NCBI GenBank assembly: GCA_021399405.1
Contig: JAAFKL010000432.1
Span: 1-5,172 of the forward strand
DNA length: 5,172 bases
Direction: 5' to 3'
Source of the DNA: Candidatus Heimdallarchaeota archaeon
GTDB taxonomy: Archaea; Asgardarchaeota; Heimdallarchaeia; Heimdallarchaeales; Kariarchaeaceae
Shown: positions 1-5,172 of the stretch, in pieces
Layout: each line of letters begins with the position of its first letter
How positions within the stretch are numbered: position 1 is the stretch's first letter
Program-made: the position numbers and the translations under genes
Notes under the pieces: model-generated
Database searches by the model: none
Told to the model about the DNA's origin: nothing
The model's input: only the letters and a program-made list of their open reading frames with translations

Positions 1-687
1 TACGATCCGAGATTGCAAAAAGTTGCAAAATCCATGGTTGGAATAATGCAGAAGACTAATCAGGACTTTGGAGTTCTAATGAAAGAACCAAGTTCGGGTG
101 AGGCAGTCTATGAGATTTCTGACGATGCTTTCATGGATCACATGCTAACCAATAATGTTAAGCAATTCAATGAAACTGGTGTGGAAAAAATTGTCACACT
201 AAGTCCACATGCGTATAACATTATGAAGCATATCTATCCTTACTATGGTTTGGATGCAGAAGTAGTTCATTATACTGAATATCTTGATCAGATTTGGAAC
301 AATGATAACATGAAATTTGCCAAGAAACTCGATATGGAAGTTACTTATCATGATCCCTGTTATCTTGGAAGATGGAATGGTGTATATGATGCTCCACGAA
401 ATCTGATTGAGGCAATTCCTGGAGTAACTCTGACTGAAATGGATGAAACCAAATCACAAGCAATTTGCTGTGGTGGTGGTGGAAATCAAATCTATCGAGA
501 AACAGAAGAGGATGTTCGCCTTTCTGATGTTCGTGTGAACGGTGCTGCTAAAACAGGCGCATCTGCTATGATCACATCTTGTGGATATTGTATCCAGAAC
601 TTCGAGGATAGTTCAAAGACCACTGGCAAGAATATTCAAATCAATGATCTGATTGAGTTAGTCATGCTTGGACTCGGAGGTCAATAA
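1..687 (+). CDS. HdrD/EMO-like (Fe-S)-binding oxidoreductase, CCG domain protein (5' end outside window)
   Basis: The frame is open from base 1 (Y-D-P-R-L-Q-K...) with no convincing start, so this is the C-terminal ~228 codons of a longer gene; the TTG at 13 is not a credible start. The visible part spans most of two CCG (cysteine-rich) domains of the heterodisulfide reductase HdrB/HdrD, GlpC and LctD/EMO families. The second is intact: HDPCYLGR with Cys at nt 358-360, CCGGGG at 466-483, and SCGYC with Cys at 580-582 and 589-591, the ligand set of a [4Fe-4S] or noncubane cluster. The first is degenerate: E-P-S-S-G at 85-99 replaces E-x-C-C-G, and SPHA at 202-213 replaces CPHC. Its stop abuts the etfA start, so it probably exchanges electrons with EtfAB, as in bacterial ETF:quinone oxidoreductases (EMO) encoded beside ETF genes. 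Whether it has the EMO membrane and ferredoxin domains cannot be seen. The family is secure; the EMO-like role is inference. Confidence 0.88.
   Translation, partial: YDPRLQKVAKSMVGIMQKTNQDFGVLMKEPSSGEAVYEISDDAFMDHMLTNNVKQFNETGVEKIVTLSPHAYNIMKHIYPYYGLDAEVVHYTEYLDQIWNNDNMKFAKKLDMEVTYHDPCYLGRWNGVYDAPRNLIEAIPGVTLTEMDETKSQAICCGGGGNQIYRETEEDVRLSDVRVNGAAKTGASAMITSCGYCIQNFEDSSKTTGKNIQINDLIELVMLGLGGQ
676..681 (+). promoter_or_regulatory. Shine-Dalgarno site of etfA
   Basis: GGAGGT lies inside the last codons of the upstream iron-sulfur gene, with 6-7 nt between it and the ATG at 688. It fixes the etfA start and shows that the gene is translated by internal or coupled initiation on a shared mRNA. Confidence 0.8.
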
Positions 688-1692
688 ATGAACCTCAAAG
701 AATGGAAAGGTATAGCTGTAATGATCGAGCAAGACGAAGGTGTTGCTCAAAACATATCATGGGAATTACTTGGTAAATCTCGTGATCTGGCAGATAAATG
801 CAATGAGGACCTTATTGCAATAGTTCTCGGCAACAAGAATACTAAAGAAATTGCTGCAGAAGCAATTCAACGTGGAGCTAATATGGCAATTGTAGCCGAC
901 CATGAATTACTCGGACATTACAAATGGGAAACTTACTCCAAGATAACCATGGAAATTATTGAGGAATACAAACCCAGTAATTTGATATTTGGAGCGAGTC
1001 CAAATGGACGAGATCTTGCAGGTCGTCTTGCAGTCAGAGCTAAAGCAGGTTTAACAGCAGATGTTGTAGAGCTTGACATTACAAAAGATGGTTTAATGTT
1101 AGGTCAGGTCCCTGGTTTCGGTGGATCAATTTTAGCCGTTATTAAATGTGAAACAAGTAGACCTCAGATGGCAACCGTTCGTCCAGGTATCTTTGTTGCC
1201 AAAGAGCCTGATACTAAGAACAAAGGTAAAATTAAAAACTTCAAAGTCAAACTCGAAGAGAGTGAGATTACTACTCATCTGATCAAGAAAGTGATTGTTG
1301 AGACTGAAGATATTTCAAAAGCCAAGAGACTCGTATCTGCTGGTAGAGGTGTCGGAAACGATATCACTTTGGTGAAGGAACTTGCTGAATTACTTGACGC
1401 ATCAATTGGTCTTACCAGACCACTTTGTGATGATGGAGTACTCCCAAGATATCACCAAATAGGGTCCACTGGTGTGACCGTAAAACCCAAATTCACTTTG
1501 AATCTTGGGATAAGTGGTGCTATGCATTATACTAGTGGTATCAAAGATTCGGACACAGTCATTTCAATCAACACTGATGATAAAGCAATTATCTTTGATT
1601 ATACTGATTACGGTGTAGTGGGCGATGTGAATGAGATTATGCCAAAGCTATTAGAGAAGCTGAAAGCAAAATTGTTACAGGAGGCTAAATAA
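688..1692 (+). CDS. etfA: Electron transfer flavoprotein subunit alpha (EtfA/FixB)
   Basis: Alpha subunit of the soluble FAD heterodimer that shuttles electrons between flavin dehydrogenases and an oxidoreductase. The 334 residues match normal EtfA length. The N-terminal ETF domain (about 1-190) has the GASPNGRDLAGRLAVRAKAG stretch from 102, followed by LTADVVEL, and SRPQMATVRPG at 157-167. The C-terminal FAD domain (about 202-330) has SAGRG (217-221), TRPLCDDG (243-250), IGSTG (258-262), GISGA (274-278) and DYGVVGD (307-313). Compared with human ETFA from memory, the flavin-contact Arg249 (here R244) and Thr266 (T261) are kept. Gln265 becomes S260 and the Gln285-His286 pair becomes H280-Y281. 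It starts directly on the upstream stop codon and overlaps etfB by one base, so it is co-transcribed with both. Family assignment is very secure. The dehydrogenase partner is not in this window. Confidence 0.96.
   Translation: MNLKEWKGIAVMIEQDEGVAQNISWELLGKSRDLADKCNEDLIAIVLGNKNTKEIAAEAIQRGANMAIVADHELLGHYKWETYSKITMEIIEEYKPSNLIFGASPNGRDLAGRLAVRAKAGLTADVVELDITKDGLMLGQVPGFGGSILAVIKCETSRPQMATVRPGIFVAKEPDTKNKGKIKNFKVKLEESEITTHLIKKVIVETEDISKAKRLVSAGRGVGNDITLVKELAELLDASIGLTRPLCDDGVLPRYHQIGSTGVTVKPKFTLNLGISGAMHYTSGIKDSDTVISINTDDKAIIFDYTDYGVVGDVNEIMPKLLEKLKAKLLQEAK
1680..1684 (+). promoter_or_regulatory. Shine-Dalgarno site of etfB
   Basis: GGAGG sits in the last codons of etfA, 7 nt before the ATG at 1692. 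It supports this start and translational coupling of the two subunits, which are needed in equal amounts. Confidence 0.8.
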
Positions 1693-2489
1693 TGTCAGAC
1701 GGATTGAATATTGTAGTAATGGTAAAAGTTGTACCTAAATCAGATCAGGTTAAAATGGACCCTGAAACGAACGCATTAATCAGAAATGTCGAATCGATTA
1801 TCAACCCACCTGACAAGAATGCAGTGGAAGTTGCTGTTTCTTTGAAAGAGAAATATGGAGGGAAAGTTACTCTAATGTCAATGGCACCACCCTTTGTGGA
1901 TGATTTCATGAGACTCATGATTGCCATGGGTGCAGATGATGCTATTTTATTAAGTGATCGTGCTTTCGCAATGGCTGATACTTATCCAACTACAATGGTT
2001 TTGGCAGAAGGTGTCAAGAAGATGGGAAATGTTGATTTAGTTATCTGTGGAGTAGAATCTGCTGATGGAGGAACCGGTAATGTACCCCCAGGACTCGCAG
2101 AATGGCTCGATTTCAGTCAAGCAACTTATGTTGAAGAAGTAGACTACGATGCTGCAGATAATCGTTTTATTGTAAAAAGAGCAACTACCAGTGGAGAGGA
2201 AATAATTTCAATTCCAAAACCAGCTGTACTCTCAATTGAACTAGGAGTTAATAGTCCACGGTTCCCTGATTTTGCCATGAAAAAAGAGCTTGATAGCAAC
2301 TACAAATTGACAATCTGGGACAATAAGGAATTTAACCTCGATCCTGAGGTCATTGGATTGCCAGGTTCATTAACCATAGTTGATGGCATGGTTCAGGGTA
2401 AAACTCGTGAGAGAAAGAAAATCTTTCTTGATGGCTCATCCGATGAGATTGCAGAGAAATTATCTGAAATCTTACTTGAAAATATGTAA
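1692..2489 (+). CDS. etfB: Electron transfer flavoprotein subunit beta (EtfB/FixA)
   Basis: Beta subunit of the ETF heterodimer, 265 residues, normal family length. Visible family features: VVMVKVVP at 8-15, NPPDKNAVEVAVSLKEK at 38-54, MSMAPP at 62-67, IAMGADDAILLSDRAFAMAD at 77-96, DLVICG at 115-120, PPGLAEWL at 132-139, the SIELGVNSPRFPDF stretch at 181-194, and the C-terminal arm RERKKIFLDGSSDEIAEKL at 239-257. The SMxPP and SDRAFAxAD elements are those of the FixA/'group 2' class, which includes bifurcating ETFs with a second FAD in EtfB instead of AMP. However, the usual GKQAIDGDTAQVGP loop reads GVESADGGTGNVPP (120-133), so bifurcation should not be assumed. The ATG overlaps the etfA stop (TAATG). 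It is the last gene of the operon. A decayed copy of its 3' end lies at 4893-4944. Confidence 0.96.
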   Translation: MSDGLNIVVMVKVVPKSDQVKMDPETNALIRNVESIINPPDKNAVEVAVSLKEKYGGKVTLMSMAPPFVDDFMRLMIAMGADDAILLSDRAFAMADTYPTTMVLAEGVKKMGNVDLVICGVESADGGTGNVPPGLAEWLDFSQATYVEEVDYDAADNRFIVKRATTSGEEIISIPKPAVLSIELGVNSPRFPDFAMKKELDSNYKLTIWDNKEFNLDPEVIGLPGSLTIVDGMVQGKTRERKKIFLDGSSDEIAEKLSEILLENM

Positions 2490-2598: not shown

Positions 2599-2603
2599 AT
2601 CAC

Positions 2604-2613
2604 TTATATATAA
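2604..2613 (+). promoter_or_regulatory. Distal TATA-like box of the beta-helix regulator gene
   Basis: TTATATATAA fits an archaeal TATA box. With the usual spacing of about 25 nt, transcription would begin near 2633-2637, leaving a leader of about 40 nt before the ATG at 2676 or about 80 nt before the ATG at 2715. No ribosome site is obvious in front of either start. Confidence 0.45.
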
Positions 2614-2714: not shown

Positions 2715-4895
2715 ATGAAAGCCACAACAGTTCAAAATTTAAAACTCGTACTCCTAATGACATTTGTCCTTACAATTATAACAAGTCATCAACAGAGAAC
2801 GATGGGAGATGATCTCGATCCAACTAATCTGATGTTACATGACTCGATTTTTATTGATGGAAATGATGACTTTCGTACAAAGGCTGCAGAAGAGGGATGG
2901 CAAGGTAGTGGATCAAAAGACAAGCCTTACCAAATTGAAAATTACTATTTCGATGGAAACAATCAATTAGATGAATATGGGTACATTCTAACTTGGGATT
3001 TGATAAATCACATTGAAATATCAAATTCCAATTTGTATGTGATTATACAAAATAATTACTTTGAAGATGGAATTGAGGGAATTGTCATCATTAACTCTGC
3101 TAATATTATTATCAAGGGAAACATAATAACCGGGATGTCAAATGGCATTTCAATTATAAATTCACATAATATACGGGTATTAGAAAATGTTTTCTCTCAG
3201 ATATATCTTATTACAACTTCGATTTATGTTTGGGAGATCCCATATCACAGAGAAATTTTATATAGAAGTGCTTTGAATATAGAGTCATCATACCAGGTAT
3301 ATGTAATAGAGAACAATTTCAATAATATCGAACCAAATGATATGATGCTATCGATGGATTGGTCGAACCGGATTCGCATTACTTATCCTTATGCAATAGA
3401 TTCAGATCACTCGAATTCGAGTTATTTATTTATTTGGAATAATTCCTTTACAAATGTCTATCATTGTATTGTTGGGAATTATCAATATTCGCAAATTATT
3501 TCAAATCAATTTTCAAATATCGGTTCAGGTATTAGATTTTATGAATCCTCAAACAATTTGATAATGGACAATGATTTCAATAATATTCATGAACCATTTG
3601 GACTCAATACTGATCAATATAGTCTATCCACAGCAATAAGCTTTCCGCGAGATACTATGGCAGGACCTATGAAGGAAGGGTCATCAAATAATAGTATAAT
3701 TGGTAATTACATTGAGAACGCTGAGAGAGGAATATATATTAATCAATTCAAAGGCTCTAATACCACTATCATGGGTAATGAGATCCAAAACACCACAACG
3801 TCGGGAATTTTTCTAGGGTATCGAGGTAGTGACTGGCCTTCTTATAATTTCAATGAAACTCCTCTACTCCCTGATATGATTACGGATAACATATTAAGTA
3901 ATGGCTATCTTGGTATTCATGTTTCGGCAGACGAAGAAGTTGAAGGTGCAGCGAAGTATTTTCTACGAGGTAATATAAAACAAAACAATTTCATTGATAA
4001 TGACAATCAAATTTTATTTACAGAATATGATTATGACATCTCCTCAGGTCAAGAAGAAGAATACACTGGTGCGATTGCAGCAGACCAAATAAACTATAAT
4101 CATTGGAGTGATTATACATCTCCCGATACTGATGGTGATGATATTGTCGACAACCCATACCCAATCTCCACAGGTTCGGATAATTCTCCAAAGGTTACAC
4201 CCTTCAATATTGATAGAGAAGCAATTAATGAATTGTATTATCCAGATGATTACAAAGCGTCAAAAGATGTTAGCTCAAGTGATGAGCCACTAGAAGAGCA
4301 ACTCATCATTTCAAACACTAAATTAGCTGCAGCAGGTATTGGAGTTCTGACCTTTATCGGTGGTGGTTCTTACTATTACTACCAAAAAGTTCCAAGAAGC
4401 AGCCTTAAAATTTCATCTCAAAAAGGTGTAGACGGTATTATTAGTTCAATTTTCTCTTCAAAATCGGCAGGATTCTTGGTACTTGGAAGTAAAATAGTAA
4501 ATCACGATGATTTATCTGATGAACTAAAAAAGGCGATCCCCGATAAACTATTGGAATATAAATTTTTAATGAATCCAGTTAGATTGTCAATTTGCAAACT
4601 TCTAATCGATAGTGTGGATCTTCCCTCAAAAAATATTAAAGAAGCCCTGGATGTATCCTGGGACAATTTTGGAACTCATTCTAAAGCACTAAGAGATGAA
4701 GGTTTGGTTGAAACATATTCCAAATTTGTAGATGGTATAGAGTCTCAGATTATTAGAATAACGCCAGAAGGAGAGAAAAGTTATAATGAATTAATAGGGA
4801 TTCTTCAGGAATTATTCGATAATAATTATTTGTACTCAACCTATTTGGATACTATAACCAAAATGCCAGATACTTATGATCAACCTATGCAATAA
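2715..4895 (+). CDS. Secreted NosD-type beta-helix / single TM / winged-helix transmembrane protein (putative one-component regulator)
   Basis: Predicted 726-residue membrane protein, numbered from the ATG at 2715; an in-frame ATG at 2676 would add 13 residues. Parts in order: signal peptide with hydrophobic core LVLLMTFVLTIIT (about 11-23); right-handed parallel beta-helix (about 71-459) with coils of about 22 residues, seen in repeated NNxF/GNxI and GIxI turns; the NosD-type end motif with NHWSDY and DTDGDDIVDNPYPI (about 460-497), whose Asp-rich loop looks Ca2+-binding; an acidic linker (498-535); one transmembrane helix (about 536-556) followed by Lys/Arg, giving an inside C terminus; and a winged helix (about 616-692; LMNPVRLSICKLLID, recognition helix around SWDNFGTHSKALRDEGLVE, wing, then IRITPEG) like HTH_34/ArsR-type domains. 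The layout suggests a ToxR/CadC-style sensor that binds DNA while membrane-bound. Beta-helices of this class often bind sugars, but the ligand is unknown. It has its own promoter and is more AT-rich than the etf genes. Domain calls are firm; regulatory function is inference. Confidence 0.85.
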   Translation: MKATTVQNLKLVLLMTFVLTIITSHQQRTMGDDLDPTNLMLHDSIFIDGNDDFRTKAAEEGWQGSGSKDKPYQIENYYFDGNNQLDEYGYILTWDLINHIEISNSNLYVIIQNNYFEDGIEGIVIINSANIIIKGNIITGMSNGISIINSHNIRVLENVFSQIYLITTSIYVWEIPYHREILYRSALNIESSYQVYVIENNFNNIEPNDMMLSMDWSNRIRITYPYAIDSDHSNSSYLFIWNNSFTNVYHCIVGNYQYSQIISNQFSNIGSGIRFYESSNNLIMDNDFNNIHEPFGLNTDQYSLSTAISFPRDTMAGPMKEGSSNNSIIGNYIENAERGIYINQFKGSNTTIMGNEIQNTTTSGIFLGYRGSDWPSYNFNETPLLPDMITDNILSNGYLGIHVSADEEVEGAAKYFLRGNIKQNNFIDNDNQILFTEYDYDISSGQEEEYTGAIAADQINYNHWSDYTSPDTDGDDIVDNPYPISTGSDNSPKVTPFNIDREAINELYYPDDYKASKDVSSSDEPLEEQLIISNTKLAAAGIGVLTFIGGGSYYYYQKVPRSSLKISSQKGVDGIISSIFSSKSAGFLVLGSKIVNHDDLSDELKKAIPDKLLEYKFLMNPVRLSICKLLIDSVDLPSKNIKEALDVSWDNFGTHSKALRDEGLVETYSKFVDGIESQIIRITPEGEKSYNELIGILQELFDNNYLYSTYLDTITKMPDTYDQPMQ

Positions 4896-4948: not shown

Positions 4949-5172
4949 CTATACTGAGATTACTCTTTCTATCCCAGGAATTCCATCAAAATCACTATCA
5001 GTTGATAAAATTTTCTTTTCTGAGTTGTTTATCATAGTTTGAAGATGAATACAATCTCTAGGAAGCAAATTGTATTCATCCATAAGCAGCGGTATTTTTC
5101 CAACAATATTTTTATCTACCAAAATAATTTGCAAATTTTCGAAACTAAGCATCACTTCATTTACCTGCTTAA
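4949..5172 (-). CDS. PIN-domain protein, VapC-like ribonuclease toxin family (5' end outside window)
   Basis: The - strand frame is open from the right window edge (KQVNEVMLSFENLQ...) to the TAG at 4949-4951, giving about 73 C-terminal residues of a protein that in this family is about 130-150 long. The GTG at 5155 followed by ATG is internal, since the residues before it continue the PIN fold. Diagnostic elements are YNLLPRDCIHLQT, with the conserved acidic Asp of the 'RDxxH' helix at 5054-5056, and ILSTDSDFDGIPGIERV, with the conserved TDxDF Asp at 4997-4999. These acidic residues bind the metal in PIN nucleases; the first two of the site would be in the missing N-terminal half. The family acts mostly as VapC toxins cutting tRNA or rRNA, usually with a small antitoxin gene just upstream, here beyond the right edge. 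It converges on the beta-helix gene with a gap of about 53 bp. Family secure; toxin role inferred. Confidence 0.85.
   Translation of the reverse strand, partial: KQVNEVMLSFENLQIILVDKNIVGKIPLLMDEYNLLPRDCIHLQTMINNSEKKILSTDSDFDGIPGIERVISV

What the first reader, a model, noticed from the sequence alone, without database searches (positions are those of the whole stretch)
2715..4895. Transmembrane one-component regulator with an extracellular beta-helix as the presumed sensor
One protein joins a signal peptide, a NosD-type beta-helix, a single membrane helix and a cytoplasmic winged helix with a clear recognition helix. Known membrane-bound one-component regulators (ToxR, CadC, TcpP) have small periplasmic domains and N-terminal DNA-binding domains; here the order is reversed and the outside part is a large repeat fold usually seen in polysaccharide-binding or -cleaving proteins. 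It may let the cell sense surface glycans, S-layer state or a partner cell and act on DNA directly. I know of no characterised example.
Basis: partly seen in the sequence, partly recalled or inferred. Interest (0 to 1): 0.78.

Follow-up and report, generated by a model that had tools for sequence, protein, structure and literature searches.

The report
Asgard membrane regulator with beta-helix ectodomain
This gene of an uncultured Asgard archaeon encodes a surface protein whose outside part is a long beta-helix and whose inside part looks like a DNA-binding switch, so it may carry a signal from the cell surface directly to genes; a small set of relatives has the same layout, but neither the signal nor DNA binding has been tested.

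Summary
Best reading: a transmembrane one-component regulator. That class is known and widespread; the beta-helix sensor is what is new. Glycan or S-layer sensing is a guess. Against DNA binding: this copy is acidic (pI 4.7); three of the five relatives are basic, two are not. A weak second hydrophobic stretch leaves topology slightly open.

The parts
2715..4895 (+). whole gene, 726 aa plus stop (ATG at 2676 would give 739 aa)
   Evidence: start chosen by alignment with P0002
2715..2810 (+). N-terminal signal peptide or signal anchor, hydrophobic core residues 8-26 (2736-2792)
   Evidence: also in P0002, P0005, P0006; absent from the recorded starts of P0003 and P0004; end of the segment is a guess
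2847..4214 (+). NosD/Beta_helix ectodomain, residues about 45-500
   Evidence: Pfam PF05048, PF13229; model with many short strands, mean pLDDT of ten-residue blocks 22-82; Foldseek best hits are beta-helix proteins but with low TM-scores
4098..4166 (+). end-of-helix motif NHWSDYTSPDTDGDDIVDNPYPI, partly conserved in all six (N462, W464, P470, D471, D479, Y482, I484 invariant)
   Evidence: a calcium-loop likeness is recalled, not tested
4317..4373 (+). membrane helix, residues 535-553
4428..4502 (+). juxtamembrane stretch modelled as two short helices (572-580, 584-596); weak second hydrophobic segment
   Evidence: VIA-align matches to MarR-type chains mostly start at model residue 73-78 (P0001 580-585)
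4536..4820 (+). winged-helix domain, residues 608-702
4659..4697 (+). recognition helix, residues 649-661 (WDNFGTHSKALRD)
   Evidence: role by homology only
4707..4760 (+). wing, two strands, residues 665-682
2603..2613 (+). TATA-box-like stretch cttatatataa; a second, cttttatata, at 2651-2660
   Evidence: read by eye in a 77% A+T region; no test of function

Best explanation
A single-pass transmembrane one-component transcription regulator. The beta-helix stands outside the cell, anchored by one membrane helix; a PH1061/MarR-like winged helix stands in the cytoplasm and is expected to work as a dimer. Binding or crowding of the ectodomain would change how two tails pair below the membrane and so their grip on DNA near the membrane. 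Shown: the gene, the domains, their order, a confident winged-helix model, recurrence in six proteins, and lower conservation of the outside part than of the winged helix. Inferred: topology, dimerisation, DNA binding, signal transfer and the nature of the signal.
For: Three domains above curated cut-offs in all six proteins. Winged-helix model with block pLDDT 82-96, and 1ub9 as best match by sequence and by fold. In all six the 15 residues after the membrane helix hold more K/R (1-4) than the 15 before (0-2), and no D/E against 2-5: C-terminus inside. The same subfamily ends eight long proteins without an N-terminal hydrophobic segment, three of them scanned and rich in TPRs, i.e. it occurs in proteins that look cytoplasmic. 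Mean identity over 15 pairs is 54% for the winged helix and 37% for the ectodomain (the ectodomain aligns with many gaps). L066 is another protein of the subfamily with one membrane helix, from a related genome. In three further loci a winged-helix gene overlaps the end of a multi-pass membrane gene (L077, L092, L093).
Against: This winged helix is acidic (11 K+R, 17 D+E, pI 4.66), P0002 too (5.11), P0004 slightly (6.57); P0003, P0005, P0006 are at 8.2-8.9 and L066, L068, L072 and PH1061 at 9.4-10.1. A second weak hydrophobic segment follows the membrane helix (approximate scores 2.7-5.3 against 0.3-1.7 for the membrane helix, lower is better), with K/R before and D/E after it in P0003-P0006, the pattern of an outward crossing; if it crossed, the domain would be outside. 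The membrane stretch was modelled with pLDDT under 50. No operator found: inverted repeats upstream are not clearly above shuffles.
Confidence: 0.6

Rival explanations
1. The winged helix is a protein-pairing module rather than a DNA binder: it heterodimerises with soluble winged-helix regulators of the cell and holds them at the membrane until the ectodomain releases them.
For: Acidic charge of this copy and of P0002; single-domain relatives in frames of about 85-170 aa make up most listed matches in Asgard genomes. That MarR-like folds dimerise is recalled.
Against: P0003, P0005 and P0006, of the same layout, have basic winged helices; helix 3 is conserved within each of the two subgroups (69-100% identity).
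Confidence: 0.2
2. Regulated proteolysis: the protein is cut at the membrane when the ectodomain is engaged and the freed tail moves to DNA as a soluble regulator.
For: One membrane helix rich in small residues (AAAGIGVLTFIGGGS) next to a complete soluble domain. No protease family was found among the five window ORFs scanned, so this rests on shape alone.
Against: No direct sign of a cleavage site; linker and membrane region are poorly conserved (mean 29% identity).
Confidence: 0.12
3. A surface adhesin or glycan-binding protein that gained a tail by fusion without regulatory use.
For: 27 of 35 beta-helix ORFs in 30 loci have a last membrane segment followed by 0-35 residues.
Against: Six proteins keep the tail, and it is better conserved than the ectodomain.
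Confidence: 0.06

Closest known systems
Transmembrane transcription regulators (TTRs), Demey et al. 2023, PMC10269533
   Same: a predicted DNA-binding domain plus at least one membrane region in one protein; single-pass is the commonest form (passages read)
   Different: no NosD or beta-helix hit in the main text; its supplements, with the domain lists, were not available to me
ArnR/ArnR1 of Sulfolobus acidocaldarius (PMC6396743, passages read)
   Same: archaeal membrane-bound one-component HTH regulators
   Different: HTH is N-terminal, two C-terminal membrane helices, sensing domain placed next to the membrane anchors and no large outside domain described in the passages read
ToxR, CadC, TcpP (recalled)
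   Same: membrane-bound DNA-binding regulators with an outside part
   Different: DNA-binding domain N-terminal; small periplasmic part
PH1061 of Pyrococcus horikoshii, PDB 1ub9
   Same: winged helix, best match by sequence and by fold
   Different: 100-residue chain without sensor or membrane part
Archaeal NosD/beta-helix surface proteins
   Same: signal segment, beta-helix, C-terminal membrane helix
   Different: 27 of 35 sampled ORFs stop within 35 residues of the last membrane helix (two of the 35, L023 and L029, are bacterial)

Membership tests
Transmembrane transcription regulators (TTRs) | predicted DNA-binding domain | tested here: met
Transmembrane transcription regulators (TTRs) | at least one transmembrane region | tested here: met
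   hydropathy and approximate insertion energy, residues 535-553; no trained topology predictor was available
Transmembrane transcription regulators (TTRs) | extracellular signal changes transcription | not testable with these tools
   needs experiment
Pfam HTH_34 (PF13601) | score above gathering cut-off | tested here: met
   all six proteins, 31.4-38.0 bits against 27
MarR family | Pfam MarR (PF01047) match | tested here: inconclusive
NosD (Pfam PF05048) | score above gathering cut-off | tested here: met
   47.1 bits against 23.6
NosD of nitrous oxide reductase maturation (TIGR04247) | score above curated cut-off 300 | tested here: not met
   29.1 bits
ToxR/CadC/TcpP or ArnR type | N-terminal DNA-binding domain | tested here: not met
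   the HTH_34 match is C-terminal in all six

The most novel reading that the evidence does not exclude
One Asgard winged-helix subfamily serves as an interchangeable output plug: on TPR arrays for signals inside, on membrane segments, and on large beta-helix ectodomains for signals outside, giving these archaea direct surface-to-gene receptors that recognise polymers or neighbouring cells without kinase relays.
Probability: 0.35. Interest if true: 0.7.

Novelty: new variant of a known kind. Interest (0 to 1): 0.5.

Why it matters
Little is known about how Asgard archaea sense their surroundings or their partners (general knowledge, not searched). A receptor that joins a large extracellular repeat fold to a DNA-binding-type domain in one chain is a concrete, testable candidate: its tail can be expressed alone and its DNA targets mapped without a culture.

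Tried and rejected
Assembly or frameshift artefact: rejected, the layout recurs in five other database proteins. Copper chaperone NosD: rejected as a name, far below the curated cut-off. Shared operon with the ETF genes: not supported; in L080 and L081 a gene on the other strand follows ETF beta, and L082 ends inside ETF beta, so it says nothing. Operator search upstream: longest perfect inverted repeat 12 nt, reached by 23 of 100 shuffles; best 32-nt inverted match 25, reached by 13 of 300. Single fusion origin: not settled; the beta-helix group needs two changes on the winged-helix tree and is one group in 0% of 200 bootstrap trees, yet starred branches force no more than one change; the long branch L067 falls beside P0001 and P0002 with weak support. 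Full-length structure model: mean pLDDT 46.7 from three sequences, so its fold matches (GH110A, PfbA, polygalacturonases, AlgG; query-normalised TM-scores 0.16-0.26 in the first 15 rows; 2 of 380 matches at E up to 0.001) say beta-helix and nothing finer. Genome scan with the three-row alignment gave 30 NosD loci and no fusion; neither of its two patterns could match P0005 or P0006, so that scan is no evidence of absence. Longer frames outside the strong group, looked at because they might be fusions: L078 and L079 (323 aa, two HTH-like halves by eye), L091 (398 aa, multi-pass membrane), L092 and L093; none has a beta-helix. Two weak matches in frames of 246 and 282 aa were not looked at. Literature: searches; the COG2512 search gave two unrelated papers.

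Full report
What is there. The window holds the end of a CCG-domain gene (1-687), ETF alpha (688-1692) and ETF beta (1692-2489), then after 225 bases the gene in question (2715-4895), then on the other strand part of a PIN-domain gene cut by the window's end. No whole genome is held for the window.

Where it comes from. These genomes lie in the phylum of G007, a Thorarchaeota MAG by the title of locus L022, so the window is most likely from an Asgard archaeon; a relative of the same layout is from Heimdallarchaeota archaeon LC_2. The class was not tested further.

The protein. Pfam gives NosD, Beta_helix and HTH_34 above cut-off. The best membrane-type segment is 8-26 and the second best 535-553. 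In all six proteins the 15 residues after the inner membrane helix hold 1-4 K/R and no D/E, the 15 before hold 0-2 K/R and 2-5 D/E. Four of six recorded proteins (P0001, P0002, P0005, P0006) have an N-terminal hydrophobic segment; P0003 and P0004 lack it, perhaps because their starts or contigs are short.

How widespread. Three protein searches (P0001 whole at E 1e-5, P0001 530-726 at 1e-3, P0003 350-527 at 1) returned six distinct proteins in all, the window's own included, each with the three Pfam families. The method needs shared 5-residue words, so distant ones can be missed; the second search, for one, did not report P0003. In 227 Asgard genomes the three-row tail profile matched 73 at E 1e-6 and the 15-row profile 162 at 1e-5 (matches weaker than about 1e-11 were not listed). 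The strong matches of the latter (E below 1e-25, 12 places, all of them rows of the profile itself) lie in five genomes: eight in ORFs of 680-870 aa, of which three were scanned and show TPRs (L068, L072, L075) and five I judge alike by eye; one with a membrane helix (L066); two of 308-309 aa with an N-terminal hydrophobic stretch (L070, L074); one alone (L077). A further TPR-like one of 621 aa is L090. None of these is joined to a beta-helix. MAGs are incomplete, so absence here is weak. In 243 genomes of the phylum of G229 (a Methanomassiliicoccales MAG), 14 match at 1e-12, in 19 places, all in frames of 90-169 aa.

A split form. In L077 (Asgard), L093 (Asgard) and L092 (a Bathyarchaeota MAG) a winged-helix gene of 99, 155 and 115 aa begins just behind or inside the end of a multi-pass membrane gene on the same strand. 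This links relatives of this winged helix to membrane proteins again, though not to beta-helices; L092 and L093 are weaker relatives than the 12 above.

A control for the layout. In 30 NosD-like loci from genome contigs, blastp at E 1e-3 found 36 ORFs related to P0001-P0003; one is a single winged helix (L003), the other 35 I take as beta-helix ORFs without a Pfam scan (33 archaeal or so titled, two bacterial). Of these, 27 end 0-35 residues after a last membrane segment, two have longer tails (L028 161 aa, L030 94 aa) and six show no C-terminal membrane segment, some cut by contig ends. The tail profile found no winged helix in any ORF of the 30 loci other than the single one in L003. So the window's family looks like an ordinary archaeal surface protein with a regulator added behind the membrane helix.

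Conservation. Over 15 pairs the mean identity is 37% for the beta-helix, 29% for linker and membrane part, 34% for the juxtamembrane part and 54% for the winged helix. The proteins fall in two groups, P0001-P0002 and P0003-P0006; between the groups helix 3 is only 31-38% identical, so the two groups need not read the same DNA. On the winged-helix tree the two groups do not come out together, but the tree is too weak to say that the fusion arose twice.

Against it. The winged helix of P0001 carries 11 K+R and 17 D+E (pI 4.66), P0002 11 and 15 (5.11), P0004 10 and 11 (6.57); P0003, P0005, P0006 are at pI 8.2-8.9; L066, L068, L072 at 9.4-10.0; the PH1061 piece at 10.1; L003 at 10.4. DNA binding by this copy is therefore less sure than by some of its relatives, and a pairing role is a serious rival.

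What is known. One-component membrane regulators are a described class: 50,302 in 9,673 genomes, 1,384 archaeal (PMC10269533, passages read). ArnR/ArnR1 are a worked archaeal example with N-terminal HTH (PMC6396743, passages read). No paper on a beta-helix receptor of this kind stood out in the listings, within an open-licence library. The only name given for one of the six is 'hypothetical protein HeimC2_02380'.

Judgement. Real, recurrent and, as far as seen, confined to one part of the Asgard archaea; a new sensor type on a known class of regulator. Signal, DNA target and direction of control are unknown.

Noticed in passing
L068, L069, L071, L072, L073, L075, L076, L067, L090: Large proteins ending in the same kind of winged helix, TPR-rich in the three scanned (L068, L072, L075) and alike by eye in the others; three each in G039 and G040. 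A stretch before the winged helix looks like a longin or roadblock domain by eye.
   Followed up: partly
L066:2-1574: A multi-membrane-helix gene followed by a membrane-helix-plus-winged-helix gene, directly upstream of dnaK and dnaJ (named by eye): possibly a stress regulator.
   Followed up: no
L077:3950-4860; L092:816-1897; L093:164-1163 (minus): Multi-pass membrane gene overlapping or abutting a winged-helix gene, in two Asgard genomes and a Bathyarchaeota one: a possible two-gene form of membrane regulator.
   Followed up: partly
L091:2004-3200: A 398-aa multi-pass membrane protein with a C-terminal winged helix in a Hodarchaeota genome.
   Followed up: no
window 4949-5170, minus strand: Part of a PIN-domain protein, cut by the window end (Pfam 30.0 bits, cut-off 23.6).
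   Followed up: no
window 1-2489: CCG-domain protein with ETF alpha and beta in one run; the same order, judged by eye, in the related genomes G039, G040 and G044.
   Followed up: partly
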